This document shows positions 7,711-63,000 of a stretch of DNA of 64,000 nucleotides, one piece after another; within the stretch, counting starts at the first letter, position 1, and each line of letters opens with the position of its first letter. A program made the position numbers and the translations under genes. A model generated the notes under the pieces. It had not been told where the DNA came from, did not search any database, and was given only the letters and a program-made list of their open reading frames with translations. The stretch lies in assembly GCA_902728285.1 (NCBI GenBank), contig CACVBU010000349.1, positions 186,001 through 250,000 on the forward strand, written 5' to 3'. This DNA comes from Clytia hemisphaerica (lineage: Eukaryota; Cnidaria; Hydrozoa; Leptothecata; Clytiidae).

Positions 7711-7822
7711 TAATTTATTATCATACTTTCGGACGAAAATAATTAGTGACCCAAACAACAACAAAAACAAAACATTTTTTTCCAAATATCAAAACAAACA
7801 ATTTTCTTTCAAATAGAAAAAA

Positions 7823-10720
7823 ATGGTGAAGGTGAATGGAGATGGATGTGTCTTCCCTGGCTGTCCTGTCTATCGTGGTTCTCCCCAATATAAAGGAGTA
7901 GGTTTGTTCAAGCTGCCTTCTAGGCCAATTGATGCTGAGTGGAAGAAAAATTTGGAGGATGTGATAAAAAAATATCGTGTTATTGACAGTGATTTAAAAA
8001 AGAGAATTGAGAGATCTAAAGTTTGGATATGTGGGAAGCATTACAAAGATTCTGACTTTGAGTTTACATTAAGTGGAGTGAGAAAGCCAAAGTTTAATGC
8101 CTTGCCTGCGATCAATCTTCCTGAAAAATCTCATGAAAAAAGTGTATCTACTCCTCGAAGGGTACTTGTTCGTGTGCCTCCACCACCTGTTGCAGACCCA
8201 ACTCCGGTTGTACCAGTGGTTGAAGAAGAAACTGATGTTGAGGTTGTTGTATTTGAAACTTATAAGGATTTCAAGAGTCGATGTTCGAAGTGGAAACTTT
8301 CTAATTGGAAGGTTGTTTTCACTGGTGAGCAATGCTTTCTCACTTATGAGCTTGAGGATTGCAAGTTTTCCATACCAAAACTTGAAATCATTATAAACTC
8401 ATCTCTTGATTTCACAGTGAGGGTATACGGTTGGTATTTCCCTGATGACCACAATGTTTACAAACAGCATAACCGGTCCATCAGAAAGATCTTATTAACT
8501 GACTTCTGCTCAGATATTTTGAAATTAGAACTTTGTAAAGGTGTTTCTTCTGCCACTGCTCCAAAGTCAACATTGCATGCTACCCCTCTTAAATATGACA
8601 AAGAAGTTCAAGTTCCGCCAGAGATTCGTTATAGAAGTGATGTTTGCGAAGTTCTAGTTGCAGGCAGTAGAGAAATATGTAGAATTTGTAATTCCTCAGA
8701 AAAGAAGAAAGATGTAAAAGACAAAAGTAACCTCACTCCAGCTTCAAAGTTTGCACCACTATCAAAGACGAACCCGCAGAAAGTCATCTTAGTCACTCCT
8801 TCGTCACCTGAGAAAACCAACGTCACCGAGAAACCGAAGAACGATCGACGGTTGACATTCGTTATTCCACCGAAACCCTCGACGACCGAACAGTCTCTTA
8901 CTGAACAGTCTTCACTCAACGATAAGCCGAAAAACCAGACAATTGTTCTCGAGAAAGTCGACCAAAGTGAAAGTAAGAAAACAAAAAGCAACAAAGTTAG
9001 CCCTGCAACAAGAAAGAGCCCTAACAAAGAAGCTAACGATTGATATTGAACACCTCAAAAATGAAATGGAGTCTAAAGGTATTGCTGTTTCGTCTGGTAT
9101 GGCTGATGATGCCATTATGAAAAACCAAAGTGAAGATTCTTCGCCTTTCATGAAGCTTTTTTGGCGCGAGCAGAAAAAACTGTCTTCTCAGGGAAACTAT
9201 GTTTACCATCCCGTGTTGATACGCTTTTGTCTGTCTTTAGCAAAGTCAGCCAAGGCTTACGATGAGTTACGAGATTCCAAAGTTTTAGTCTTGCCAAGCA
9301 GAAGAACTCTCCGTGACTACAAAAATGCCATTCGACCAACCGTTGGGTTCAATCATGAAGTTGTTCAAGAACTGGTAGATTTGACAAAAGATTTTGAAGG
9401 CCACCAAAAGAACATCACATTGTCTTTTGATGAAGTGAAATTCCAAGAAGACCTTGTTTATGATAAGCACACTGGGGAACTTATCGGTTTTGTTGATCTT
9501 GGGGACCCTGATATTAACTACTCTACTTTTAAAGAATCAGATACTGTTGCAACTCATTGTCTTGTCTTTTATGTGCGTGGTATATCAACAGATCTTAAGT
9601 TCAGCTTCGCTTACTTTGCCACTGTGGGTGCCACGGGCTCTCAGTGATGTTACTTTTTTGGAGAGCTGTCTCCGTACTAGAGCTGACTTGCAAGTTAAGA
9701 GTAATTGTCACTGCTGTGTTTGATGGGGCTTCATTTAACAGGGCTTTTTTTAAATACCACAAAGAGTTATCCCAGTCTTTCTCCAGTGTAATTTATAGGA
9801 CAATAAATATGTTTCCCCAAGAAAGAAGGTTCATTTTCTTTTTCTCAGATGCTCCACATCTTATGAAAACTATGCGAAATGCTATCTATCACTCTCGCAG
9901 GGATGGCATAGGGACAAGAGATTTGTGGAACGGAAATCCAATTTTATGGAATCAAATTGTACATGTGGTTCAAGATGACATGTATCGCAGTTTGAAGTTG
10001 CTGCCAAAATTATCTCTGGCACACATCAACCTAACTTCATACTCTTCAATGACTGTCAGTCTTGCAACACAGGTTTTGAGCTCAAAAATGTCAAGTGTCA
10101 TCTATCGCTACTACCCTGAGTACAAAACCACAGCCGACCTCTGTCAATACATGGATTGTTTTTTCGATTGTTTTAACGTCAGGTCTCAGGAGGAAGGAAA
10201 ATTGAAAAGAAAAATCTTTTTAGAACCATTCCGAGATCAAAATGACTGGAGACTTGATTGGCTCCAAAACGTTTTTTTGGGTTATTTTGATAGTTGGAAG
10301 AGAAAGGTCTACTCAATAACAGATAAGACTGATAAGGAAAAGGAGAGAATGTTTATTCCCTATCAAACCTATGAAGGTATATGTATAAATGTTAGCTCAC
10401 TTGTTGAATGAGTTAAATTCCTCTTAAAAAGTGGTGCTGAATTTGTACTGACAGAGAGGTTTTGTCAAGATGTTTTAGAAGAATATTTTGGTCGTCAAAG
10501 ATGCATTTCTGGCTTCAATACAACACCTAGCGTTTTTCAGTTTGGGTACAATGCAAATGCTCTCCGTGTTCAAAGATTCATGACACCCACTCGAACTGGC
10601 AATACCAAAGGTGTTCACAGAGGAAAAAGGATGCCGTCTTGGACAGTTGTTGACAGCCGACCACTGAAAAAAAGGCGAACAAACCAGATTGGTGCAAATG
10701 GAGAAGATGCAAAACGCTAG
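7823..10720 (+). pseudogene. THAP-domain P-element-like transposase, broken
   Basis: It belongs to the P-element/THAP9 superfamily, DNA transposases that bind their ends through a THAP zinc finger and cut with an RNase H-like domain. Residues 1-80 form the THAP finger: CVFPGC, then WICGKHY. A coiled-coil segment (LALQQERALTKKLTIDIEHL) follows at about 8980-9070. The nuclease domain shows LSFDEVKFQEDLVYDKHTG, FDGASFNRAFFK and DAPHLMKTMRN. The C-terminal part has [19 protein letters not shown] (about 10450-10500). Three lesions are visible: a frame change between 8943 and 9043, a one-base frameshift near 9640 (GATGS/LFWRAV junction), and an in-frame TGA at 10409-10411, after which the frame stays open to the TAG at 10718. 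The frame change at 8943-9043 could instead be a missed intron. Start chosen at ATG 7823 (AAAAAATGG). Confidence 0.88.
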
Positions 10721-35880: not shown

Positions 35881-35943
35881 ATAACTTTGATTGAATCTTC
35901 CTTTTGTAAATAATTTTTTTTTTCTTTTTATAGATTACTAGCT

Positions 35944-38106
35944 ATGCCGAAGCGAAAAGGTAGCAGAGAACTCGTTAAAAAGCAAGGTCTTCTTAGTAAG
36001 TTCCAGGCAAACAAAAAGACTATTACTAGAATGGAGGAAAGAATAAAAGAGCAGGTTTCTCTTATAGAACAACTTCAAGAAAAAGTCGAATATAATGACA
36101 GAAAATTGTGTGATCTTGAGAATCAGTTGAATAAACAACAAGAAATAATATCTGCAAAACGTGCAGAGTTAGAAAATTCTAAGAATAGTATTACCACAAT
36201 CCAAAATGAAAACAACAAGAAATACAGCATTCAGATAACTTCTTGCACCTCAAAGAAACGACGCGCCAATCCGTCATCAGAAAATTTGAATTTAAAAGCG
36301 AAGTGTGTTCGGAGGAATGAAACCTTCCAAATTTGTCAAAAAGTTCATGGAGGTACTGATTTAGATAATAAACCAACTCTTTTTGGAATGGTAGATACCC
36401 TCACAGCCAAGTTTAAATCGAAAGAGGTTTCTGATACTTTACTCTCATCAAAACAGTCGTTGACAAAATGTTTGAAAGAATCACAAATTAAAAGTTGGAG
36501 TGACGCTTATTCCAATTCTGAGGAAAACAGGTTGCGTTCATTAAACGTATATTACAGCAACGACGTTATGGGAAAGAGGAAATATTCAAATGTCAGGAAA
36601 GCTAATAACAGAGCAAAGTTTGAGGGACAAAGTATTCCAAATTTCATTCCATACAAGAACCTTGCTAAGTAAATCGAAAGTGTTGATATAGGTATAACAA
36701 ATGATGCAAATAATTTATTGCCTGGGGGGCAAGAAGTTGACGGAGTCTACAGAGAGCCTGCGTCTTTTATCAAGCGTTTGGGAAAGTTTTATCTTAATCA
36801 TAATAAAGAACGTTCGGACAAATTGAAAGAGTTTCCAAACCTTCCAAAGAAGGACAACGACTCTTTTATGTTTGCAATAGCTTTTGGGGGAGATGGGGCA
36901 CCGGGCTACGGTACCTCTGTTTTGGTATCCTTCTTGAATGTAGGCCAACGCATAGCAAGCAGCTCAGAAAACTTTCTTTTGTTCGGAGCAGATGTTGACG
37001 AAAGCTCTGATGTTGTAGGGGCATTTATTAAAAAGCTTACCCCTGATATTAAAGATCTTGAGAGTAAAGTATTTGAAATCGAAGAACACAAAGTTGAGTT
37101 TTGTGTTGGCGAAGTTCCCAGTGACATGAAAATGCTCGCACATCTTGCTGGAGAATTGAGTAATGGCTCAACTTATTTTTCAACATTTGCAAATGTCTCC
37201 TCTCATGAATCAAATGACTTTACAAAGAAATTCAGTACCTCCGACAAAAAAGCTGATCGGAAACCATGGGATTTTAATACAAGGATTAAGCATGCGGAAG
37301 ATGTTGCTAAATTCAAAGACACTTTAAAATCTACAAACGCAGAATCAACCAAACGAAACAAAGTTACCAAACACATAAGCAAAACCTTATCCAGTCGTCA
37401 AGAATTTAAACCCTTAATTGGGTCTTACGTTGAAAAAGCAAAAGCAGAGCCACTTCATTTAAAAAATAACATTGTTAAAGAAAAATTCATGAAACATTTT
37501 AAAATCTGCACCTCTGAATCTAAGTTGAATGGAATAAGTTCATTTAAAGATATTCCATCTGCAACACTTTTTGTCAAATTTGTAAATTTCATTCACGACG
37601 AGATGAACTCTAATTTTCTTTCCAAAAAAATTAAAAGGTGGTTCAATGACTTGTCCAAAGTAAAGGAAAAAGATTTTTCATTTCGGTTTCGAGGTAAAGA
37701 GAGTAATTCATTTTTGAAACATTTTCCTCAATTAATTTTTTTTATTATGAGCCAAGTTACAAAGCAGTCGATAAAAACTCGTCTTCTTGAAATTCACCGA
37801 CAATGCATTGCTTTGAGAAAGTTGTTATCATACAGTGTTCGCATAATCAATTTCAACGAAACTCAATCAAAAGAAATGTTTGATTTAGGAAATGAACTGT
37901 TTAAAACTTGCTGTCTCTTTGAACAAAATGTCACGCCAAGTCTTTGGACTTTATGCAATGCCGCTCCTGAACACGCAAAACTATGCCTCGAAAAGTACGG
38001 TTTTGGATTAGGGTGCAATACTATGGAAGGCAGGGAACAAAAGCATCAAGCCATAGAAAGATGCCAATAACACTACATTCCAAAATAGATGGCCTGGTAT
38101 TTTCAG
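35944..38106 (+). pseudogene. Unclassified DDE-like transposase, one stop and one frameshift
   Basis: The N-terminal 80 residues form a basic coiled coil (starting MPKRKGSRELVKKQGLLSKF). A Lys-rich linker follows, then MGKRKYSNVRKANNRAKF and IPNFIPYKNLAK. A single TAA at 36670-36672 interrupts an otherwise continuous frame, which goes on to 38070. The second part carries AIAFGGDGAPGYG, LFGADVDESSDVVGAF, GEVPSDMKMLAHLAGELSNG and near its end NTMEGREQKHQAIERC. Acidic residues in that order with beta-strand-like segments suggest an RNase H-fold transposase with a large helical insertion, distantly reminiscent of Transib/RAG1. A one-base shift near 38065 then gives NNTTFQNRWPGIFRH, where the sequence changes to a LINE. 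No TIRs were identified. The family is not one I can name. Confidence 0.5.
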
Positions 38107-48200: not shown

Positions 48201-49790
48201 TTTGGTCCAAACATCTCATAAAACACAGACATAAACGTTTAACACAGTTAAAACTCAGTCAAAAAATATCAGAATTAAAACTAACACTACCAAAAATATC
48301 TTTCTGTGATCCATCTGCTCCTGAAACTGACATAAACATTAATTTTAACTATTATGAACAAATCAGAACTCTTAACACTTACAAATGAGGATGAAAACAT
48401 TAGCTTTTTTCATACTAACATCCGTTCATATGACAAAAATTACAAGTTTTATGTTATAGGTCTATCTGAAACATGGGACTCTCCATCCAAACCAATTGAC
48501 CTTCAAGAGCATCTTGGCTATCAACCATTAGAAAGTGTTGGAGGTAAGTCTCAAAACGGTGGAGTGATTGTGTACATCAAGGAGGAATTGAACTATCATA
48601 GAAGAAGAGACCTCGAGAAAGAATTGAAATCAGGTGAGAACTTTGAGTGTGAATCCTTATTTATAGAGCTAAAATTAGGAAGTGCTCTAAGTAACTACAT
48701 TGTTGGAGTTGTGTATCGTCACCCAAGCAATAAAATCAAACTCTTTAATGAAAAACTTGAAAGTTTTTTGAATAAGATTGGCCGAGAAAATAAACAGATA
48801 ATCTTAATGGGTGACTTCAACATTGATCTTCTCAAAGCTAACAAACGCAGAGAAACCAATGATCATGTAGATTTAATGTTCAAAAACTTTCCCCTATATT
48901 ACTCATCCTACAAAATTTGACAAAGAGCTTAATGCAACTCTTATAGACAACATCTACCACGACAATGTTTCCGGTGAATTTATAAGTGGAAATCTCATCT
49001 CAAGTGTCTCAGATCACTTACCTAATTTTTTAATTCTGTCTTCTGTCAAAACCAAACCTATCAAAAAGAAAATCCTGAAACGTGATTTCAAAAACTTTGA
49101 CATAGCTGAATTCCGCTCAGACCTCCTGAGTGCAGGCATAAAAAATAAGATTGAGCAGACACACGATCCATCAAAAATGTATGATTTTCTTCACAATACA
49201 TTATCAATTTTATTTGAAATGCATTGCCCAATAAAACCTATCACACGTAAAGAACAAAAGCGTCTACGTAAACCCTGGATCACTGATTCCATTCTAAAAA
49301 ACATTACCAGGAAAGAAGAACTTAATAAAATCTATTTAAGAACAGGCAACCGAGAGATTTTCAAAGACTATCAATTACTTAAACACAACATCAACAAAGA
49401 AATTAGAAACAGTAAATTTCACTACCAAAAACGAAGATTTGAATTGTTTAGATCAAACTCAAAAAAACTATGGAAAGAAATAAACCATCTTCTTTCAAGA
49501 AATTCTTCCAAATCTCTTCCACAAACTATGAATCGAGGCAAGAAACAACTACAAAATAAGCAAGAAATTACCAAAAACTTCAATGAACACTTTTCACAAG
49601 TAGCACCAAACCTTCTCAAAAACATGAAAACAGGCAATAACCCTTTAGCAGGCATCAAACACACAAAGCAAAGCATGTTCTTTGAACCTGTTAATGAGTA
49701 CGAAGTTCAAGTCTGATTAAAGAACTAAATCCAGAAAAAGCCCTCGATATATACAAATTTCCAGTTAACGTCATTAAAGAAATCAGCGAT
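48201..49790 (+). pseudogene. LINE ORF2: endonuclease and start of RT
   Basis: The apurinic-type endonuclease is recognisable from VIGLSETWDS, GGVIVYIKEEL, VVYRHPSNK, MGDFNIDLLK and, after a frameshift near 48897, SSVSDHLPNFL. These are the E, N/D and SDH catalytic motifs. About 30-40 residues before VIGLSETW seem deleted (IRSYDKNYKF). The linker (49177-49716) has RKPWITDSILKNITRKEELN. After a frameshift near 49712 the RT approach IKELNPEKALDIYKFP is cut at 49790 by the 8.66-kb element and resumes at 58458. Confidence 0.88.
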
Positions 49791-50455
49791 CTAATCTATG
49801 GTGGCCTATAAATGTCATAACAATTATTAAGGAAAAATCACAAAAAAGGAAAAAAAATCGATGATTTCTCACAAAATCTTTCAAAAAATTAAGAAAAAAA
49901 AAAAAAAAAAAAAAAAGATGTAAAGTGAATAAAAAAAATCTAAAACACATAAAAAAATAAAAATAAAAATAAAAGTGTGAACAATAACAAAAAAAACAAA
50001 AAAAAACTCATAACACCCGCGTGGCCCATCGATCTCATAGCCTTTCGGTGTCATACGGTGCCGTATCCTTGAGTGACCGAGAATTCGGCAACCGTGATAG
50101 TGTATAAACATTGTTCGTCAGCCGTAAAAGTTTACCGATCGAAATCGAAAGTATGTTTCTAAACAACATGAAACAGATAATGGATTTCAATGTTTGTTGT
50201 TTTGTCTGTTTGTGGTTGTGGTTTTGCTTTATCAAACTAGTTAATTTTACCTCATAATTGTGTTTATCAGTTAGTTTAATTAATTCGAGCACTTTCTTGT
50301 ACGCTTTTATACATCTTTGGTCTAACTAAATAGCAGCAACTTTACTGTAATGATCATTAATCTTATAAATCTGAAATCTCCTAGATTTATCCATAAAATT
50401 TACTCTCCTGGAAAAAGAGAACAGATATTTCAAAGAAATCTGCGGCTGCTCTTGT

Positions 50456-50537
50456 ATTTTAATGACCAGCCAGGTCTTTTAATTGAGGGCTATGCATGTT
50501 AGCCTCCACTGATGCAAATTAACCAATCTCACGATAC
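50456..50537. mobile_element. Half copy of palindromic MITE
   Basis: It matches the right arm of the element at 41145-41362: AATGACCAGCCAGGTC, GAGGGCTATGCATGTTAGCC, TCCACTGATGCA. It lies between the left TIR and the integrase gene. Confidence 0.75.
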
Positions 50538-50752
50538 TGTAACCAAATTTCTAAGCAAGCTTAAGTACCTGCACACTTTTTATGAGAATACTATAGGTTG
50601 GTGTTATCTTGTAGAGGGAGATAATTCTTATTTTCAACAGCTTTTTGTGTGCATATCTTGCCAATATTGATGTTATACATTTAAAGCCTCAAGCTTTTGT
50701 ATTTGTCTCTAAGCAACTTTTTCACATTTTGAGGAAGAGAATAAAAAGAAAA

Positions 50753-52845
50753 ATGAGTATCGCAAGAATCAGAAATGATAGTTGGAAGGATGATGAAAAC
50801 CTAAAAGAAGTGTTAACCGACTATGTCTCTAAGACTTTCAAGAAATGTGAAATTCTGGATTTTGTCAAAAGAGATTTCCCTCAATATGCTTGGAGTCCAT
50901 CATCACTATCACGTCGACTGAACCACTTCAGAATCCAATATACTGACTACAATGTCCCTGTTGATGTTATTCAGGGGATAGTTAGCAATGAGATGGGTGG
51001 ACCTGGAGCCCTTCTAGGCTATAGAGCTATGCATCAGAAAATCAGACAAGAATACAAATTAAACGTTCCAAGAGCTGTGGTACATGGTGCCATGTTTAAT
51101 GAAAATCCAGAGCTTCTAGAAGCAAGAAGACCAGGAGCAAAAAAGAAAGAGAAAGGACACTTTTCTTCCCCTGGTCCTAATTTTGTCCACTCACTTGATG
51201 GACACGATAAGTTGATGGGATACCAAAACAGTACTTTCCCGATAGCAATTTATGGATCTATCGATACATGTAGCCGAAAAATTTTGTGGTTGAAAGTATG
51301 GAGTAGCAACAGTAATCCAGATCTGATCGGAAGGTTTTACATTGAATACCTATACAAAAGCAAAGTCGTTGCTCAAAACCTTCGAATAGATAAAGGAACA
51401 GAAACTGTCCAGATGGCTGGTGTACATTGTTATTTACTGAAGGATAAAGTGGACGATCCAACAAAAAACATCATATTTGGACCATCAACCTCAAACCAGG
51501 TAAATATTAAATTCATTTTGGTGATTCTATATTCTGTCAAACTTTGTACAGGTCTTCCAACCAATTCTTTTTTGGACTAGGATAAAAGTGAAAATCAAGA
51601 AAAATTGTAAAAATTTAAAACTCCATTTCAATCAACATTTCAAATATCTAACCATCTACCCCCTCCCCTAAAGCATCAAAAAAATCCGTCTATAATCTCA
51701 GATCCTTTTTTTATCAGATTGAACGCTGGTGGAAGGAGTTGCATGAGAAACTAGAAGAATATTATAAAGACCAATTAAGAACCATGAAAGACAACCTTAT
51801 GTACGATCCAAAAAACGAATTACACAGGTAAGTAAGGTATTACAGTATTTCAAAAAAGAAAGAAAACTGGCAGTCGCCTCATTTTGATATATTTTATCAT
51901 TTTATTCACTATATGAAGAATTTATATATGTAGTTTTTGTTGAAATTATGTCCATAACATTCAAAACTAAAATTTAAAATGACATTCAAAACGTAAAATC
52001 AGAATTTCTTTCTCTAAGGAACATGTTTTCTTTTTTCAGGGAAATTCTTGCGTATGTTATGGTACCAATAATTCAACATCAAGTGGATGTATTTGTTGAG
52101 TTGTGGAATAATCATCGGATTCGTAAACAAAAAGAAACGTATTTGCCTACCGGAAAACCCTCTCATATTTACAGTTTTCCAGAGAATTGGGGTCTTCACG
52201 AGTGTGGTATGTTAATTTTGCCATATAATTTTATTTTTATCAATACATTACATTGAGTTCGGATTTACATCTTTCAACAGATGAAAATTTTTAATTTGTT
52301 TAAATTTTCGTTGCATTATATAAATTATTGACTACTCTCGGGTACTTAATAGCCGTCCCCCCCCCCCGCTAATTAATTTTTCGAAAATTTTCCACCCAGG
52401 ACATACTTATTCCAACCCCCCCGCTTATTAATTTTTGGGAAAATATTTTTGAAAGTTCCCTTTTTTGTCCTAATTCAGCTGTAATAGCCTCCTTTTCAAA
52501 AATTTTCCACCCAGGACATTTTTATTCCAACCCCCCCCCCGCTTATTAAGTTTTGAGATTTTTTCCAACCCCCCCCCCCCGCTTATTCCAACCCCCCGGC
52601 TATTAGGTACCCGAGAGTAATCAAGAGAGTAAACCTTTTCTCAAATCTCAGGTTTTGAAACTACACAAGAGGAATTGACTGAAGTGGCACAGCTATCGGG
52701 AGTTTTTAACAATGATGATCTTGATGATTACATCAAACCGGAAACGCGAATTCGTTGTGAGCAGCTGAAAATGATCAATCCCGAAGAAGACTCTGTTAAC
52801 ATAATTGCACCCTTTCTCTACATAAGAGATCACTACGGGGATTAA
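50753..52845 (+). CDS. rve/DDE integrase-type transposase, 4 exons, intact
   Basis: Exons 50753-51499, 51718-51827, 52040-52206 and 52652-52845 join in frame to 405 codons plus TAA. Borders are consensus: CAG|GTAAAT, TTATCAG|ATT, CACAG|GTAAGT, TTTTCAG|GGA, GTG|GTATGT, ATCTCAG|GTT. The N-terminal third is helical and may bind DNA (WSPSSLSRRLNHFRIQYTDY). The catalytic core shows VHSLDGHDKL (first Asp), LRIDKGTET (second Asp) and, 38 residues on, NQIERWW (Glu), with the second and third acids split by intron 1. This is the integrase core domain found in eukaryotic DNA transposons. The C-terminal part has WNNHRIRKQ and ENWGLHECG. No lesion is seen, so the protein could be active. The start was chosen at the first in-frame ATG; an acceptor-like TTTTCAACAG at 50640 leaves room for an upstream exon. 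Confidence 0.88.
52335..52617. mobile_element. C-run MITE in integrase intron 3, TA flanks
   Basis: The ends CTCTCGGGTACTTAATAGCC and the complement GGCTATTAGGTACCCGAGAG differ by one base and are flanked by TA. The interior is made of long C-runs alternating with GCTTATTAATTTTT-like units. The same end occurs near 20366. It lies wholly within the intron, so it does not disturb coding. Confidence 0.8.
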
Positions 52846-52985
52846 TAGAAAAGTCATTGGTCCTTAACATGTGCATGTATTATATCATATTTACGATTAC
52901 TGTAATCTTTGACACTTTTTGATAATTTGAAAGAAAGTTTTCTAAAACTAGAGAGATTTTGAAATAATTTTAAGTATTCAACACT

Positions 52986-53247
52986 GGGCTCTTCCAGAAA
53001 AAATCCGTTCATGGGGGGTGGAGGATATATTATTTTTTTCATGAATTACCCCTGGACATTTTGATTTTTAACCCCCTGGACACGGGTTATACCCCTGGAC
53101 AAACATCAAATCAACCCCGTGGACACAAAAAATTACCCCTGGACATTGGAATTTACCCCCTGGACATTGCAATTTTTTGGTATTTTTTCAATACCCCTGG
53201 ACAATTCATCCTCCACCCCCTATGAACGGACTTTTCTGGAAGAGCCC
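52986..53247. mobile_element. Foldback element, ~37-bp ends
   Basis: GGGCTCTTCCAGAAAAAATC near 52986 and GACTTTTCTGGAAGAGCCC ending at 53247 form the ends. The inverted similarity continues through CGTTCATGGGGGGTGGAGGAT. The interior repeats CCCCTGGACA about eight times. I cannot fix a target duplication. Confidence 0.7.
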
Positions 53248-53266
53248 ATTGTCCAAAATCTAAGTA

Positions 53267-53859
53267 CTCTTAGGTGCCAAATAAACACCCCCCATAGTAT
53301 GAATAAAGGGGGGTCCGAGTTTTCAAGGAAGGCTTTATAGGGGGGATGGGCAATTTTCCAGTTAAAATGGGGGGTTTGAGCTTATAGGGAGGGGGATCAA
53401 ATAAAAATTGGGGGGGGGGGATAGTTGATGAAAGTCTTATTTCTTATTTTTCCTAGTTTTACTATTATTAGTTTACTGTTTATTTGCTAGTGTTTTCAAG
53501 TTCATTGACTATTGGTACGAATTCACACTGAAAAATATATTTTATTCATCAAAATTCTTCCCCAATACTGGGAGTACAAATTATATGCTGGGGGCTCGGA
53601 CCCCTGTAAATGGCGTGCGGGATCAAAAAATTTTAAAAATAGGGGGATACCTTTATAGGGGGGATGAAATATTAATGGGGGGTCCAGACCCCTCTGCACA
53701 CTATGCCCCCCCCCTCCGCTTGTTAATTTTTTTTAAGCTGTCAAAGAGAAGGCCCCTTATTTTGCTCTAAATAGCCTGATTTTAGCCTATTTTTACCTTA
53801 TTTTTGGGTTTCAGAAGTACAATTTCCAAGCCCCCCCCCGTTTATTTGGAACCTAAGAG
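53267..53859. mobile_element. G/C-run MITE, TA flanks
   Basis: The ends CTCTTAGGTGCCAAATAAAC and the complement GTTTATTTGGAACCTAAGAG differ by one base, with TA on each side. The interior is dominated by GGGGGG and CCCCCC runs. The ends resemble those of 52335-52617 (CTCT-GGT-C pattern), so they look like two members of one family. Another end of this type is at about 27193. Confidence 0.78.
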
Positions 53860-54695
53860 TACTGTACTTTTGTTTTTTGTGAAAACCATAGAACTTTGAA
53901 TGTTGAGTTGAATGTCAAAACTTAGCTCCTACACCTTTTTTTTATAAGCATATCCAGGCTGAGATAACAATTATTAACAATATTAACACTATAAGCACAA
54001 TCGAAGCTTAGCTCGAAAAAAGCTGATGCTTATATAAAAACCTTTTTTTTTGTAATTTTTTTTCTTCAGACATGTTCAAGAAATTGAAATAGAAAGTGCT
54101 CTGTATTTCGAGAAAATTTTCAGCCCATCTAAGGGGAGTGGAGGCAAGTTAGGGTTATTTGTCAGAGACTGACTGACAATTGATAATTGGAGTAAGGATC
54201 TTAAAAAGGTGGGTTTTCGTTTTTTCAATGTAATAATAAAAAGCTAACTAGTCAAAAATACTACAATAATACATACAAAGACTTAATAGGTAGGTTTCGT
54301 TTTTCCTATATACAAAATATTTAGTCAAAATTTTGACTTCTTTTTAAAGTCTAAAATCAAAATCACTTTTCAATAAATAAATTCACACCAAAGTCAAGTC
54401 AATGGGTGAATTCCTAGAAAATGTTCCATCCACATAAACTGTGCAATCTTTTCACCCTCTTTCAGAAGAATAAACAAAAGCTAAAAACAAAATACTCACA
54501 GAAATATTTGTATATATGTTTGTGATGTCTGAGGGCAAAAAAATGAATTACACTTCATGAAATAACTCAAAAAATAATAACAAAATAGGAACAGGAGAAC
54601 AATAAACAGTTCGAGTTTCAAAAATTACTCAAAAAGAAAATGGAAGAAGTTTCAATTTAAATATGATTGTATGTATGATATGTACGTTTTGAAAG

Positions 54696-55987
54696 TCATT
54701 CTCCAAATCTCTTACCAATTTGCTTGCACCAACTATTGCACTTGTGCACTTTTAAAAATTTCTGGATAGCTTCATGACCCCAATTTCCTGTACAAAAGTA
54801 CATCTTGTCTGTACTGTCATGCGAGTTTTGACTGGCAATTTCAGGGTCGCTCAAAGTGTATTTCACCCCTTGCAGATCTACGACCATTAAAGATTTTCTT
54901 GATTCTAGGTATGTATAGTGAGCAAATGTTTCAGCCTTTTTTAACAAAGTTTTATCTAACTCTGGTGCATGGTTAATATTACCATCATTATTGACAAATT
55001 TCTCAAATTCTCCCTCCAAAAACCTTTCTACAGTAACGTATTGATCACCATTACCATCGTTGAATTTACCAAAATACAAAGTTGTGTACACAAAGGATTC
55101 ACCAAAATCCTTAGGAATCACTTGTTTGAATTTAACTGAAAGGTATTGTGCTAGGGCATGCATTTGAACTGTTTTTCTGGCATGCTCTTCCTCTGTGAAT
55201 AACCTTTCTTTAAGAACATCAATTTTTTCTTTTTGAAATGTTTTTACAACATAATCACCATAGAGTTTATTGCAGCTGAATGCTTTAAACACATCTCGGA
55301 AGCCACCATGTCCAAATGGTTGTTCCTCCATTGTCATTTTCACCTCAAAGGGGGTAACCATCTCTGCGTGTTGACATTGAATTCCTCCAATGTAAACACT
55401 TTCAATTTTGAATTTTGTGGCTCAATCAGTTGTCCCATTTTCATGTATTTTGATGGGGGTAATGATACAAGTGGCCCATTGATGTTTGCCACTGGAAGCT
55501 TGCTTGTTGGAAAGTGTGATTTTTGTATTTGAGTTGAATTATTACTAGAAATACCAGATGCATTTGCTGATCTTTTGCGGGCTGGTGGCAATGAAGACTT
55601 AAATGTAGATGTTTCATTATTTGCTTTCCCAGGAACGAATCTAATGTGAAGAGGAACAAACTTCTTGATTTCTGAGATTTGGGTCCAGGAAGGGCCACGT
55701 TCTCCAGCCAAAATATCGATCTCTTGGTTCTGTTTCATCTCAAGATGAAAGTGATTTTTACATGCCTTCTTAATATTGTCAAGTGTAAGCTGCATACCAT
55801 TGAAATTAACATAGGTGAGGGGTCCAATCCGGTCGTAGGTTTGTAATTTGCCTGATACTCCAGTGGACATTCTCTGGACGGTCAAATTTTCGAAGGATTC
55901 AAATTTCCCTCCTTTGCTGCTCTTTTTGTCTTTCAAACCTTCAAGAAAAGCTTTGTATTGATCTTGTCCTCGCTTTTTTCCAGACAT
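54696..55987 (-). pseudogene. Alpha-kinase (eEF2K/MHCK-type) gene with one-base frameshift
   Basis: Alpha-kinases are atypical Ser/Thr kinases that often target alpha-helical substrates. The ATG at 55987 starts MSGKKRGQDQYKAFLEGL. A middle region has YVNFNGMQLTLDNIKKACKN and DILAGERGPSW. The kinase domain follows a frameshift near 55350 (a C-run after TGGTTA): a Gly-rich loop FGHGGFRDVFKAF, the putative catalytic Lys in GDYVVKTF, VERFLEGEFEKFV, the metal-binding motif LMVVDLQGV with LSDPEIA, and the zinc and activation end NWGHEAIQKFLKVHKCNSWC. All key residues look present. One base restores about 430 codons, so it may be a very recent lesion or a sequencing error. No intron is seen. It faces the integrase within the same TIR element. 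Confidence 0.85.
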
Positions 55988-56287
55988 TTTGGATTTTTTC
56001 TGCTGCTTTTGGACTGCTTCACTGCTTCCCGCGTGTTTCAAGTTCAATATGGCGCAGGATGTAAACAAACAAACTTTACGGTAGCCGGCCTATCGAACGA
56101 TTACATTACGGCAACGACAAATTATAGTTGACGGCACCGTATGACATCCTTGGGCTATGATATCGATGGGCCACGTTAAACACGATAAATAAAAAACTTT
56201 TTCATTTTAAACTTTTTTAATTTCTTTTATATTTTCTTTATTTTCTTTATTTCTTTAAATTTTTAAATAAATATATATATTGGCACA

Positions 56288-57514
56288 GGGAATGAGACAT
56301 ATGTCAAAGTCCATCGTGACAAAATGGAGATTGTTGATAAAAATGTTTTGTATTCAAAACGTCTTGGGTTTACGGTTTCGGACAAAGACTTGGATCTTCC
56401 AAGTATCTATTGGACCCCCAAAAAGCATAAACATCCCACAGGAAAGCGATTTATCATAGCATCAAAACATTGTTCTACTAAACTTATTTCGAAATCTATA
56501 AGCTTAGTATTTAAACTCATTTATCGACAGATAGAAAATTTTCACACAAAGTCAAAATTCTTGAGTAATTACAATAAGTTTTGGGTGCTTCAAAATTGCA
56601 ATCCTGTTTTGGAGTCCTTAAACCGTATCAATAAAAAGAAGAATGCTAAGTCTATTTCCACCTTTGACTTCAGTACTCTTTACACAAAGATCCCTCATGA
56701 CAAACTTATTAAAGAATTGGCAGAGGTTATTGACTTTGTTTTTGATGCAGGTAGTTCGAAATATATTGCCATCTCCCAGAACGACAAAGCTTACTGGTCG
56801 AGAACGAAACCTAAATCGTCTATTTCCTTTTCAAAAAGTTCTTTGAAAACCGCTGTCAAACATCTGATTAAAAATTGTTTTTTCAAAGCTGGCAATGTTG
56901 TCATGTGTCAGGTCATAGGTATCCCAATGGGCATCGATCCAGCGCCATTTTGGGCTAACTTATTTTTATATCAATACGAACATAGATATATGACCCAGTT
57001 GATTGAACAAGATAAAGTGAAGGCTCGTCATTTTCATTCAACCAAACGATTCATTGATGATCTCTGTGCTGTAAACGATGGGAACATGTTCGAATCAGTA
57101 TATAGAGAAATATATCCAGATGAACTTGAGCTCAAAGTTGAACACTCAGGATCTCATGCTTCGTTCCTTAACCTTGACATTTCCATCAAAGACGGGGTTT
57201 TTGTTTACAAGTTGTTTGACAAACGCGATGCCTTCCCTTTTTCTATTGTTCGTATGCCTCACATTGACAGTAATATGCCAGAGTCCATTTTTTATTCTTC
57301 GTTTGTTGGTGAGTTTTTGAGAATAGCTCGATCCACTCTTTTATTTGAAGACTTGAGAGACAAATCTCACATATTTATTCAAAGAATGCGTGCCCAAGGC
57401 GCTACAGTTGGTAAACTCAATCTTAGTCTGCGTAGAGTCATTACACGTCACAGTTCGGAATTTTCAAGGTTTCAACTCAGTTTAAATGCAGTCGTTCACC
57501 AGCTTTTGCGGTGA
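56288..57514 (+). CDS. Reverse transcriptase ORF, 5'-truncated (PLE-like or unclassified)
   Basis: The frame is open from about 56288 to the TGA at 57512-57514. It has LPSIYWTPKKHKHPTGKRF, FDFSTLYTKIPHDKL (first catalytic Asp), GIPMGIDPAPFWANLFLYQY (motif B), and RFIDDLCAVND (the Y/FxDD box, here FIDD), then SHASFLNLDISI. This resembles RT proteins of Penelope-like or other unclassified animal retroelements, not the LINE RTs in this window. The N-terminal region is missing: coding resemblance begins abruptly after the T-rich flank of the inner element. There are no internal stops over more than 400 codons. It lies between the inner and outer right TIRs. Confidence 0.72.
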   Translation, partial: GNETYVKVHRDKMEIVDKNVLYSKRLGFTVSDKDLDLPSIYWTPKKHKHPTGKRFIIASKHCSTKLISKSISLVFKLIYRQIENFHTKSKFLSNYNKFWVLQNCNPVLESLNRINKKKNAKSISTFDFSTLYTKIPHDKLIKELAEVIDFVFDAGSSKYIAISQNDKAYWSRTKPKSSISFSKSSLKTAVKHLIKNCFFKAGNVVMCQVIGIPMGIDPAPFWANLFLYQYEHRYMTQLIEQDKVKARHFHSTKRFIDDLCAVNDGNMFESVYREIYPDELELKVEHSGSHASFLNLDISIKDGVFVYKLFDKRDAFPFSIVRMPHIDSNMPESIFYSSFVGEFLRIARSTLLFEDLRDKSHIFIQRMRAQGATVGKLNLSLRRVITRHSSEFSRFQLSLNAVVHQLLR

Positions 57515-58432
57515 GCGGCCACGGGGATACGAGGCATCGAACCGGGCTATCACCCAACTTTTCAAAAAATTCTCATGCTTTTTTCCATCCTTTCAATCTT
57601 CTTCTCCCTTGTCATAGATGGTGGCAGTCTATTTCAAGTGTTTTTTCTTTACCTTCGAATGTATTATCTGCAACGTTAGTGGCAGAACGGGTCAAAGATG
57701 TGGCAACTTTGTCCAGTGGGTAGAACTTCTCTAGCTAGTTTTTGGTATCTTCGGCAGGTCCGTAGGTTTTATGTTTGAGTTTGTTTTTATACTTTTGCGC
57801 GCGTTTTAATAATTCAAAGAAACACATTTATTTTTACGACCTCATCTGTGGTGATGCCTGATCAACATTGCTAGGCCTACCTACATTACCCTGTTTATAT
57901 CATTAGGGAGGATATTTTCGAAAATGGCCGAAATCCTATGTAGGTTGAAAACTGAAGAACAGAGTTTGTGTTTTCTTTGAATATATTTAATTGATTCATA
58001 TTGAGTCACTTTTACTTGTGTTTAATTTTACTTTTTCTCACATTGAGTTGCTTCTTTCCTTTTGGTCGATTTAGATCATGATGTGCACTTTTGCTTTTGA
58101 GATACTTCCGAAGAATACACCATTGTCCCATTTCTGTTTTTCTGCTCCATCAGAATTATGTACAAATAGTTTAGATCTTTTGTCATCATTTGATATCACA
58201 GACCTGGTTTCCATTTTATGAATATTCATCCTGAGCATGTTGTGTTGTTGTGTCCTCTTGTTGGTATTGTTTTGTCTCTTTTTGTTTATTACATTTTTTG
58301 AATAGTTGAAGGTTCAATACTTCTTTGACTATATATATTTTTTCTTTTGTTAAAAATCAATTTTTTTCTTTTATTATTATTTAATTATTTTTCAACATTT
58401 TTTAACATTTTAATGTTTTATTTTCAAAAGTA
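57515..58432. other. T-rich non-coding tail of the outer element
   Basis: I see no gene here. T-rich sequence leads to the right TIR of the 8.66-kb element. A GC-rich patch just after the RT stop (GAGCGGCCACGGGGATACG) includes ATCGAACCGGGC. Confidence 0.4.
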
Positions 58433-58457
58433 GTCATGACACTCATGGGCCACCATA

Positions 58458-60020
58458 CTAATCAGTCCAGAATTAGCTATTATCATCAATAAATCTGTAA
58501 AAAAGGGCGTATTTCCTGAAAAACTCAAGACTGCCAAAGTTACACCAGTTTTTAAAAATAATGGTAATAAGCATGATATTTCGGTGCCGTAGGAAGCATT
58601 TTCATATTGGGGGGGGCTGAAGTTTAGTGACACCGCGAGGGCCAACCATGGTTTGGGCCGAGGGGGAAAATTTTGAAAATTTGAGCTCTAGATTGCTTAA
58701 AAATACACTCAAAACATGCACATAACGACAATTATGACAAATTTAAAAAAAAAACTTTGCATCTTGCAAAATAACCATTTTTGACAAAAATATTGGGGGG
58801 CATAGCCCCCCTTGCCCCCCCCCCAGTTGCTACGGCACTGATATTTCAAATTACCGACCCATTTCAGTTCTTCCTATTTTTGATAAAATCTTTGAAAAAG
58901 CCATAAACCATAGAATGAAAAAGTTTCTCATAGATAATAACATACTCTACCAAGACCAATTTGGTTTTCAGACAGGTAAGTCTACCTCAGATGCTGTGTT
59001 AAAGTTGACTGATGAAATATATTCACAAATCAAAAAGAAAAAGATCTGCTGTACTATTCTGCTTGATCTAGCTAAGGCATTTGATACAGTCAACCATGAC
59101 ATTCTCATAAGTAAGCTAAATGCAATTGGAATAAGGGGTCCACTGAACAAGTGGTTTCAAAGTTACTTATCCAACCGAAAACAAGTTGTAAGTATTGATT
59201 CAGAAACATCAACCCCTCTTGAAATGGAATACGAAGTTCCCCAAGGCTCAGTCCTATGTCCCACACTTTTCCTTATTTATATCAATGATCTTCCCTTGTC
59301 ATCAGCTAAATTTTCATTTACCCTATTTGCTGACGATACATCTCTCTTTTCATGCAATGACGACCCTCAAACCCTAGAGAATTTGGTAAATGAAGAATTA
59401 GAACTTGTAAATAATTGGTTGGTGAACAATAGGCTATCATTAAATATTAAAAAATCTTGCTTTCTTCTCTTCACAGGTAAAAAGCAAGTTGAAAATTTCA
59501 ATGTTCTGATATCAGGTAACCAAGTTCAACCAAATATCTTGGAGTAATTATTGATGAAAAACTAGATTGGCAAGCTCATATCCATCATGTAGCTAACAAA
59601 GTAAAACAAGGCTCTGGTCTTGTACGTAAATTAAGTTATTTAATTTCTCCTCATTGTTTATCTTCTCTTTATCATGCTTTTATACAATGTCACTTACAAT
59701 ATTGTATTACATCTTGGGGCTCACCTAGCACCAAGGGTCTAGGTGAGTTAAATTCTCTGATAAACAGTATATCATACAAGATAGAAAAAATCTACTATAA
59801 AAATAATACGAAACCACTAAATGCATTTAACATCAATTCCCTCTATAAACTAGAATGCAATAAACTCATCTATAAATTCATCCATAAAATATCACCTAAA
59901 AGTCTAAACATGTTATTCAGTAAACCAATACATAATCTTGGCACGCGTCAACCTGCATCCAATTCACTGACAACTTTAGTAGTTTTTGCTGACTCTCCTT
60001 CTCCCATTCGTTTTTATGGA
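58458..60020 (+). pseudogene. LINE reverse transcriptase (continuation of 48201-49790)
   Basis: The frame resumes with LISPELAIIINKSVKKGVFP and TPVFKNNGNKHDIS. After the inserted MITE it goes on with NYRPISVLPIFDKIFEKAIN, LLDLAKAFDTVNHDIL, VPQGSVLCPTLFLIYIND and LFADDT, the usual RT blocks with the FADD catalytic pair. A frame change near 59535 leads into the thumb (YLGVIIDEKLDWQAHIHHVA) and C-terminal part to about 59990. The long ORF 58915-59547 shows that decay is mild. It ends at the satellite array, so no 3' tail is preserved. Confidence 0.9.
58583..58839. mobile_element. hAT-type MITE, 257 bp, 8-bp TSD GATATTTC
   Basis: GATATTTC occurs immediately on both sides (58575-58582 and 58840-58847). 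The ends GGTGCCGTAG and CTACGGCACT are inverted with one mismatch. An 8-bp duplication is the hAT signature. Removing the insert rejoins the LINE frame exactly at HDIS/NYRP. The interior contains G-runs and C-runs and no transposase. Confidence 0.88.
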
Positions 60021-63000
60021 GTATTTATCTTGCCAATCATTATACTGAATGAAAATTGATTATCTTTTTAGGCTTTTATTATATTTGTAAAGTTTTTAGG
60101 AATGTTTATTCTTGCCTATCATGCTTTATTGGAAAACTTATTGATACCATGAATGTAGCAAGACGGTTGAACATCCTATGGAAAGTTTGGTTTTTCGAAG
60201 ACTCCTTTGTATTTATCTTGCCAATCAATATACTGAATGAAAATTGAACATCATTTTAGGCTTTCTTTCTATTTGTAATCTTTTTAGGAATGTTTATTCT
60301 TGCCTATCATGCTTAATTGGAAAACTTATTGATACCATGAATGTAGCAAGACAGTTGAACATCCTATGGAGAGGTTGGTTTTTCAAAGACTCCTTTGTAT
60401 TTATCTTACCAATCAATATACTGAATGAAAATTGAACATCTTTTTAGGCTTTCATTCTATTGGTAAACTTTTTAGGATTGTTTATTCTGGCCTATCATGC
60501 TTAATTGGAAATCTCATTGATACTTTGAATGTAGCAAGATGGTGTAAAATTATGTGGAAAGGTTGGTTTTTCGAAGACTCCTTTGTATTTATCTTGCCAA
60601 TCATTATACTGAATGAAAATTGATTATCTTTTTAGGCTTTCATTATATTTGTAAAGTTTTTAGGAATATTTATTCTTGCCTATCATGCTTTATTGGAAAA
60701 CTTATTGATACCATGAATGTAGCAAGACGGTGGAAAATCATATGGAAAGGTTGGTTTTTCGAAGACTCCTTTGTATTTATCTTGCCAATCAATATACTGA
60801 ATGAAAATTGAACATCATTTTATGCTTTCATTCTATTTTTAAAGTTTTTAGGATTGTATATTCTTGCCTATCATGCTTTATTGGAAATATTATTGATACC
60901 ATGAATGTAGCAAGACGGTTGAACATCCTATGGAAAGTTTGGTTTTTCGAAGACTCCTTTGTATTTATCTTACCAATCAATATACTGAATGAAAATTGAA
61001 CATCTTTTTAGGCTTTCATTCTATTGGTAAACTTTTTAGGATTGTTTATTCTTGCCTATCATGCTTAATTGAAAAACTCATTGATACTATGAATGTAGCA
61101 AGACGGTGTAAAATCATGTGGAAAGGTTGGTTTTTCGAAGACTCCTTTGTATTTATCTTGCCAATCATTATACTGAATGAAAAATGATTATCTTTTTAGG
61201 CTTTCATTATATTTGTAAAGTTTTTAGGATTGTTTATTCTTGCCTATCATGCTTAATTGAAAAACTCATTGATACCATGAATGTAGCAAGACGGTGGAAA
61301 ATCATATGTAAAGGTTGGTTGTTCGAAGACTCCTTTGTATTTATCTTGCAAATCATTATACTGAATGAAAAATGATTATCTTTTTAGGCTTTTATTATAT
61401 TTGTAAAGTTTTTAGGATTGTTTATTCTTGCCTATCATGCTTAATTGAAAAACTCATTGATACTTTGAATGTAGCAAGATGGTGTAAAATTATGTGGAAA
61501 GGTTGGTTTTTCGAAGACTCCTTTTTATTTATCTTGCCAATCATTATACTGAATGAAAATTGAACATCATTTTATGCTTTCATTCTATTGGTAAACTTTT
61601 TAGGATTGTTTATTCTGGCCTATCATGCTTAATTGGAAATCGCATTGATACCATGAATGTAGCAAGAAGGTGGAAAATCATATGTAAAGGTTGGTTGTTC
61701 GAAGACTCCTTTGTATTTATCTTGCAATTCATTATACTGAATGAAAAATGATTATCTTTTTAGGCTTTAATTATATTTGTAAAGTTTTTAGAATTGTTTA
61801 TTCTTGCCTATCATGCTTAATTGAAAAACTCATTGATACCATTAATGTAGCAAGACGGTGGAAAATCATATGTAAAGGTTGGTTGTTCGAAGACTCCTTT
61901 GCATTTATCTTACAAATCATTATACTGAATGAAAAATTATTATCTTTTTAGGCTTTCATTATATTTGTATAGTTTTTAGGATTGTCTATTCTTCCCTATC
62001 ACGCATAACTAAAAAACTCATTGATCCAATCAATGTAGCAAGACGGTTAAACATCCTATGGAAAGGTTGGTTTTTCGAAGACTCCTTTTTATTTATCTTA
62101 CCAATCAATATACTGAATTAAAATTGAACATCTTTTTAGGCTTTCATTCTATTGGTAAACTTTTTAGGATTGTTTATTCTGGCCTATCATGCTTAATTGG
62201 AAATCTCATTGATACTTTGAATGTAGCAAGATGGTGTAAAATTATGTGGAAAGGTTGGTTTTTCGAAGACTCCTTTGTATTTATCTTGCCAATCATTATA
62301 CTGAATGAAAATTGATTATCTTTTTAGGCTTTCATTATATTTGTAAAGTTTTTAGGAATATTTATTCTTGCCTATCATGCTTTATTGGAAAACTTATTGA
62401 TACTTTGAATGTAGCAAGATGGTGTAAAATTATGTGGAAAGGTTGGTTTTTCGAAGACTCCTTTGTATTTATCTTGCCAATCATTATACTGAATGAAAAT
62501 TGATTATCTTTTTAGGCTTTCATTATATTTGTAAAGTTTTTAGGATTGTTTATTCTTGCCTATCATGCTTAATTGAAAAACTCATTGATACCATGAATGT
62601 AGCAAGATGGTGGAAAATCATATGGAAAGGTTGGTTTTTCGAAGGCTCCTTTGTATTTATCTTGCCAATCAATATACTGAATGAAAATTGAACATCATTT
62701 TAGGCTTTCTTTCTATTTGTAATCTTTTTAGGAATGTTTATTCTTGCCTATCATGCTTAATTGGAAAACTTATTGATACCATGAATGTAGCAAGACAGTT
62801 GAACATCCTATGGAGAGGTTGGTTTTTCAAAGACTCCTTTGTATTTATCTTACCAATCAATATACTGAATGAAAATTGAACATCTTTTTAGGCTTTCATT
62901 CTATTGGTAAACTTTTTAGGATTGTTTATTCTGGCCTATCATGCTTAATTGGAAATGTCATTGATACTTTGAATGTAGCAAGATGGTGTAAAATTATGTG

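What the first reader, a model, noticed from the sequence alone, without database searches (positions are those of the whole stretch)
50020..56175. TIR transposon pairing an rve integrase with an alpha-kinase gene
Two 45-bp inverted ends (39/45 identical) enclose only two recognisable genes: a four-exon integrase-core transposase and, convergent to it, an alpha-kinase. A signalling kinase as cargo of a DDE-integrase DNA transposon is not an arrangement I know to be described. It could explain multi-copy alpha-kinases in some animal genomes. The ends and both genes are read from the sequence; the cargo idea is inference.
Basis: partly seen in the sequence, partly recalled or inferred. Interest (0 to 1): 0.9.

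Follow-up and report, generated by a model that had tools for sequence, protein, structure and literature searches.

The report
Jellyfish jumping gene carrying a kinase
In the jellyfish Clytia a cut-and-paste jumping gene of the IS3EU kind carries its own protein kinase; the pairing was already noted in print for fungi, and here it accounts for many of the animal's kinase copies.

Summary
The transposon is real and the kinase belongs to it, but the reported ends are wrong. The genome is that of the hydrozoan Clytia hemisphaerica (inferred). The 45-bp arms are subterminal repeats. The element is 49797-58457: TATGGTGGCC termini and a perfect 6-bp duplication, CTAATC, inside a LINE that exists uninterrupted elsewhere in the genome. 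The four-exon transposase (PF24764) and the convergent alpha-kinase (PF02816) are confirmed; the kinase frame is shifted here but open in the other haplotype. Of 55 related transposase loci 46 have an alpha-kinase within 20 kb (0.5 expected), against 0 of 47 loci of a more distant group; seven elements hold both genes between termini with perfect 6-bp duplications. Termini and duplication fit the IS3EU superfamily. Kojima (2025, PMC12730594) already states that TET-bearing fungal IS3EU carry transposase and alpha-kinase in opposite orientation, so the arrangement is not new. Not found in print: an animal case, same-strand layouts, a shared N-terminal domain of ubiquitin-like arrangement, and the link to alpha-kinase multiplicity in an animal. 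Against: 53 of 99 kinase loci have no such transposase nearby. What the kinase does is inferred only.

The parts
49791..49796 (.). target-site duplication CTAATC, left copy
49797..49826 (+). left terminal inverted repeat, TATGGTGGCC..; 23 of the first 30 bases match the right end
   Evidence: same base is the border of the C786 copy, which has another flank
50020..50064 (+). left subterminal inverted repeat (the finding's left 'end')
50753..51499 (+). transposase exon 1 (holds D149 and D213; first base of codon 250 onward in exon 2)
51718..51827 (+). transposase exon 2 (holds E251)
52040..52206 (+). transposase exon 3; the C662 haplotype has a 3.9-kb insert near its end
52652..52845 (+). transposase exon 4 with stop codon
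54696..55987 (-). alpha-kinase gene, ATG at 55987, stop at 54696-54698; frame shifted once between about 55343 and 55421 in this haplotype
55634..55897 (-). conserved N-terminal domain of the kinase protein, predicted ubiquitin-like arrangement
56131..56175 (-). right subterminal inverted repeat (the finding's right 'end')
56282..58329 (+). insert of about 2 kb with a reverse-transcriptase frame (56267-57514, Penelope-like by eye), absent from the C662 haplotype
58428..58457 (-). right terminal inverted repeat, TATGGTGGCC.. on the minus strand
58458..58463 (.). target-site duplication CTAATC, right copy
48336..49790 (+). LINE flank (endonuclease frame), not part of the element: left half of the target
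58464..60059 (+). LINE flank (reverse-transcriptase frame), not part of the element: right half of the target

Best explanation
The tract is one member of a kinase-bearing branch of the IS3EU (IS3EU/GingerRoot) superfamily of DNA transposons in Clytia hemisphaerica. The DDE transposase recognises the TATGGTGGCC termini, and probably the symmetric subterminal repeats, and inserts the element with a 6-bp staggered cut; movement by cut and paste follows from what is known of such enzymes. The second gene is an alpha-kinase with a conserved N-terminal domain of ubiquitin-like arrangement; it is a standing component of this branch, not a one-off capture. Shown: termini, 6-bp duplications, uninterrupted target copies, pairing in the genome, conserved catalytic residues. 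Inferred: that the kinase helps the element, most likely by phosphorylating the transposase or a host factor that limits transposition or silences the element (about 0.35 for such a helper role; substrate unknown). The confidence below is for the element's identity and for the kinase as its standing component.
For: Ends and CTAATC. Six LINE copies at 95-98% identity run unbroken across the joined target, while the window's own match splits with a 6-bp overlap; the joined flanks give a continuous LINE frame. Both genes between termini with perfect 6-bp duplications in seven elements: window CTAATC, C523 GTAGAG, C628 CATAAG, C314 CTAGAC, C771 AACCTG (convergent), C248:576155-584025 GTTATG and C274 CACGTG (same strand). 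Pairing 46 of 55 against 0.5 expected, and 0 of 47 distant transposases. Triad D149/D213/E251 in 37 of 37 aligned relatives, the first 37 of 120 listed hits. Conserved kinase residues in 34 of 34 aligned rows. N-domain in 27 of the 30 best-scoring kinase loci, 12 of which supplied the queries. Kinase and transposase distances correlate: r 0.96 over 17 loci, r 0.37 with p 0.018 over 9 dereplicated ones. Superfamily traits from PMC10045372 and PMC12730594 (passages).
Against: No Repbase IS3EU transposase could be compared directly. C562 has two termini but unequal 6-mers, GAGGGG and GTCTTC. 9 of 55 related transposase loci have no kinase within 20 kb and 53 of 99 kinase loci no such transposase. 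The 55 are not all independent: C248 and C662 are haplotypes of one insertion, and several families have near-identical copies. Among 136 kinase pairs dS is saturated in 131; of the other five, three give dN/dS 0.13-0.26, one has no synonymous change and one gives 2.4 on five changes. No tool tests kinase activity.
Confidence: 0.85

Rival explanations
1. The kinase is passive cargo: a host alpha-kinase gene was caught between the termini and is carried along without use to the element.
For: 9 of 55 related transposase loci lack a kinase nearby and 0 of 47 distant ones have it, so such a transposase can exist without it. Several kinase copies are broken, the window's among them.
Against: Pairing across transposase lineages that share only about 40-60% identity, in two layouts; conserved residues and a conserved extra domain; dN/dS 0.13-0.26 in three informative pairs; the same pairing reported in fungi (PMC12730594).
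Confidence: 0.25
2. The kinase serves a selfish end other than transposition, for example a toxin-antidote or germline drive that favours carriers of the element.
For: Nothing direct; kinases as drive genes on mobile elements are recalled from other systems, from no call.
Against: One kinase gene with a canonical active site and no separate antidote gene was recognised between the termini; no inheritance data.
Confidence: 0.07
3. The alpha-kinases are host genes that the transposon likes to insert beside.
For: 53 of 99 kinase loci have no related transposase within 20 kb.
Against: In seven elements the kinase lies between the termini and their 6-bp duplications, and the window's target is a LINE without a kinase.
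Confidence: 0.02
4. The finding as given: the element is 50020-56175 with an AACAC duplication.
For: The 45-nt arms are real and AACAC occurs on both sides.
Against: A copy on C786 and the LINE target put the left border at 49797; the arms are internal in C662 and C786 too.
Confidence: 0.02

Closest known systems
TET-bearing IS3EU families of fungi (Kojima 2025, PMC12730594)
   Same: Transposase and alpha-kinase in opposite orientation; rust families with TAYGG..CCRTA ends and 6-bp duplications (passages read).
   Different: Those lie in fungi and have a TET/JBP gene between the two; none was recognised here, but I did not scan the gap for one. In Clytia 25 of 46 pairs have both genes on one strand.
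IS3EU/GingerRoot superfamily in general (Kojima and Bao 2023, PMC10045372)
   Same: TA..TA ends, usually 6-bp duplications, no HHCC motif upstream of the core (passages).
   Different: The word kinase does not occur in that paper's main text.
Ginger1 and Ginger2 DNA transposons
   Same: Integrase-type DDE core.
   Different: 4-bp or 4-5-bp duplications, and an HHCC motif in Ginger1, according to PMC10045372; here 6 bp and a single cysteine before the core.
Alpha-kinases TRPM7/ChaK, myosin heavy chain kinase A, eEF2K
   Same: Catalytic domain by sequence and by predicted fold, best 1ia9.
   Different: Here the gene lies inside a transposon; the N-terminal domain was not matched to these proteins in the results I saw.

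Membership tests
IS3EU superfamily | TA..TA termini, TAYGG..CCRTA in rust families | tested here: met
   TATGGTGGCC at both ends of the window element and of seven others (C523, C628, C314, C771, C248, C274, C562)
IS3EU superfamily | 6-bp target-site duplication (usual) | tested here: met
   7 of 8 elements with both termini read have a perfect 6-bp duplication, none extends to 7; C562 has none
IS3EU superfamily | no HHCC motif before the catalytic core | tested here: met
   only one cysteine, C32, precedes D149
IS3EU superfamily | transposase groups with IS3EU/GingerRoot in a tree | not testable with these tools
   Repbase sequences are not held; only PF24764 and the DDE triad were tested
IS3EU, fungal TET-bearing families | TIRs longer than 30 bp (rust families) | tested here: inconclusive
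   23 of the first 30 bases match between the two ends; a second symmetric 45-bp pair lies inside
IS3EU, fungal TET-bearing families | TET/JBP gene between transposase and kinase | tested here: inconclusive
   longest stop-to-stop frame in the gap 52846-54695 is 112 aa; it was not scanned for TET/JBP and exons could be missed
IS3EU, fungal TET-bearing families | alpha-kinase in opposite orientation to the transposase | tested here: met
   window: transposase +, kinase -; in the genome 21 convergent and 25 same-strand pairs
Ginger1/Ginger2 | 4- or 5-bp duplications | tested here: not met
   6 bp
alpha-kinase family | alpha-kinase domain with conserved catalytic residues | tested here: met
   PF02816 E 1.9e-38 on the open copy; K249, E321, D371, Q373, D381, G401, N402 invariant in 34 of 34 rows; which of them are catalytic is recalled

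The most novel reading that the evidence does not exclude
The alpha-kinase is an ancient working part of one IS3EU branch, older than the split of fungi and animals: a transposon that carries its own regulatory kinase with a ubiquitin-like docking domain, needed for efficient transposition or for escape from silencing. Much of the excess of alpha-kinases in cnidarians and rust fungi would then be transposon proteins, not host signalling genes.
Probability: 0.35. Interest if true: 0.75.

Novelty: new member of a known kind. Interest (0 to 1): 0.5.

Why it matters
Proteins named by public sources as signalling kinases (TRPM6 in the octocoral Paramuricea and TRPM6-like in the hemichordate Saccoglossus, alpha-protein kinase 1- and 2-like in Dendronephthya, MHCK-A-like in Oculina, eEF2 kinase in Exaiptasia) match the profile of the element kinase, so counts of alpha-kinases in such genomes may partly count transposons. 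A table row in PMC4469406 (passage) gives 79, 39 and 5 alpha-kinases in three of ten columns and 0 in seven, and the text calls the family highly expanded in rusts; the fungal IS3EU report could explain that in the same way. It makes a clean question testable: does a eukaryotic transposon use its own kinase to control its movement?

Tried and rejected

Not in print: the searches listed no report of an alpha-kinase in an animal IS3EU or in Clytia; one search listed 15 of 18 papers, most listed papers were not opened, the library holds open-licence papers only, and Repbase entries could not be seen.

Full report
Source. A protein identical to the window's transposase over 84% of its length is annotated in Clytia hemisphaerica on a contig of 1,464,641 bases. 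The window's own assembly, G000 (417 Mb, 951 contigs), holds a contig of exactly that length, C662; the window is C248:186001-250000. That the genome is Clytia is inferred from length and identity.

Observation. The 45-nt arms exist. The plus-strand gene splices in four exons into 405 residues with the Pfam integrase core PF24764 and the triad D149, D213, E251, present in 37 of 37 aligned relatives, the first 37 of 120 listed hits. The minus-strand gene is an alpha-kinase. Its frame is shifted once in the window; the C662 copy has an open frame of 464 codons.

True ends. Related elements at unrelated places (C432, C504, C523, C628; C207, C314, C832) stop matching at or within two bases of TATGGTGGCC where that end is kept; some ends are truncated. 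The motif occurs in the window at 49797 (plus) and 58457 (minus), each bordered by CTAATC. Of six motif sites in 64 kb only this pair has matching 6-mers; 200 mononucleotide shuffles had none. Another copy of the left end, on C786, has a different flank and begins at the same base. The finding's arms begin at base 223 and 225 from the two ends of the C662 haplotype, and share 17 and 14 of 25 bases with the terminal motif beside them; I read them as inner transposase-binding repeats, which is inference. The window haplotype has an extra insert of about 2 kb with a reverse transcriptase between the right arm and the right end. The C662 haplotype has instead 3.9 kb inserted near the end of transposase exon 3, where the public protein P0001 breaks off. 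So this insertion has an uninterrupted transposase gene with a shifted kinase frame in one haplotype, and the reverse in the other.

Empty target. The flanks are two halves of a LINE: an endonuclease frame to the left, a reverse transcriptase to the right. Joined over one CTAATC they give a continuous frame. A search with 240 nt of that joint gave 31 matches; six genomic LINE copies at 95-98% identity run unbroken through the site, and more distant ones at 69-76% do too. The window's own halves match 1-130 and 125-240, an overlap of exactly six bases. This is evidence of insertion with a 6-bp duplication, from paralogous LINE copies.

Pairing. PF02816 gives 113 matches in the genome, merged to 99 loci. 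The window's transposase gives 110 matches, merged to 102 loci; the tool scored 103 of 541 candidates, so this is a lower bound. By identity they fall into 55 at 40% or more and 47 at 35% or less. Of the 55, 46 have a kinase within 20 kb (44 within 10 kb, 40 within 5 kb), 21 convergent and 25 on one strand, and 9 have none; of the 47, none has. Chance would give 0.5 of 55 (for randomly placed loci). The 55 are not all independent: C248 and C662 are haplotypes of one insertion, and several families have near-identical copies. Of 99 kinase loci, 53 have no such transposase nearby; among the 30 best-scoring ones 4 lack it, and of those C622 has a terminus and transposase exons and C948 a terminus. 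Seven elements have both genes inside termini with perfect 6-bp duplications; C562 has two termini but unequal 6-mers.

The kinase protein. Across 34 aligned sequences the residues usually taken as catalytic (recalled) are invariant, and a region before the kinase is conserved. That region was found in 27 of the 30 best kinase loci, 12 of which supplied the queries. The full model has mean pLDDT 83.9; its kinase matches TRPM7/ChaK, MHCK-A and eEF2K. The N-domain alone (pLDDT 90.9) has three strands, a helix and two strands and resembles ubiquitin-like folds, at scores that may mean only a common arrangement. Of 136 kinase pairs, three with usable dS give dN/dS 0.13-0.26; 131 are saturated, one pair has no synonymous change and one gives 2.4 on five changes. 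Kinase and transposase distances agree strongly over 17 loci (r 0.96) and moderately over 9 dereplicated ones (r 0.37, p 0.018). A EukProt entry (TCONS_00023830) is 95% identical to this kinase over half its length and has a shortened end too; its name suggests that it comes from a transcript (inference).

Elsewhere. Proteins of the same architecture occur in octocorals, a stony coral and the hemichordate Saccoglossus, with a partial match in the anemone Exaiptasia, and in many unnamed sources. Six contig lengths are shared exactly between the transposase and kinase lists, one of them a named Dendronephthya contig of 4,408,652 bases; this suggests, but does not show, linkage.

What is known. 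Kojima and Bao 2023 (PMC10045372; passages and part 1 of 5 read) give IS3EU as TA..TA-ended with usually 6-bp duplications and no HHCC motif. Kojima 2025 (PMC12730594; passages and outline read) states that all TET-bearing IS3EU families have a TET/JBP gene between transposase and alpha-kinase, which are in opposite orientation, and that the rust families end in TAYGG. The window fits these traits apart from the TET/JBP gene, which was not recognised. The arrangement is therefore known in fungi. The animal case, its scale in one genome and the same-strand layouts were not found in the library searches.

How it likely works. Shown: a DDE transposon with defined ends and 6-bp duplications that stably carries a kinase. 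Inferred: cut-and-paste movement, binding of terminal and subterminal repeats by the transposase, and a helper role of the kinase through phosphorylation of the transposase or a host factor. Retention across lineages argues for a function, but no result names a substrate.

Noticed in passing
window 48336-49796 and 58464-60059: A LINE (endonuclease and RT frames) is the insertion target; copies elsewhere are uninterrupted.
   Followed up: yes
window 56282-58329: Insert with a reverse transcriptase (Penelope-like by eye; RVT_1 just under its cut-off) nested in this haplotype, absent from contig C662.
   Followed up: partly
C662:897307-901208 and C662:904468-909565 (L006-L008): The other haplotype carries two other inserts: 3.9 kb near the end of transposase exon 3, and about 5 kb in the flanking LINE with an 8-bp overlap at its border.
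   Followed up: partly
window 7817-10411: THAP domain (just under cut-off) followed by TNP-like RNase H and GTP-binding insertion domains in several frames: a P-element-like transposase (name recalled).
   Followed up: no
G000, 47 loci at 29-35% identity: A distant group of related transposases in open frames of about 300-600 codons, none with an alpha-kinase within 20 kb; ends not examined.
   Followed up: partly
window 35914-38070: Two adjoining frames (252 and 465 codons) without a Pfam match.
   Followed up: no
C786:630081-640715 (L009-L011): Two partial copies of the window element's transposase on one contig, 98% identical in protein, with one left end and no right end found in 622000-649999.
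   Followed up: partly
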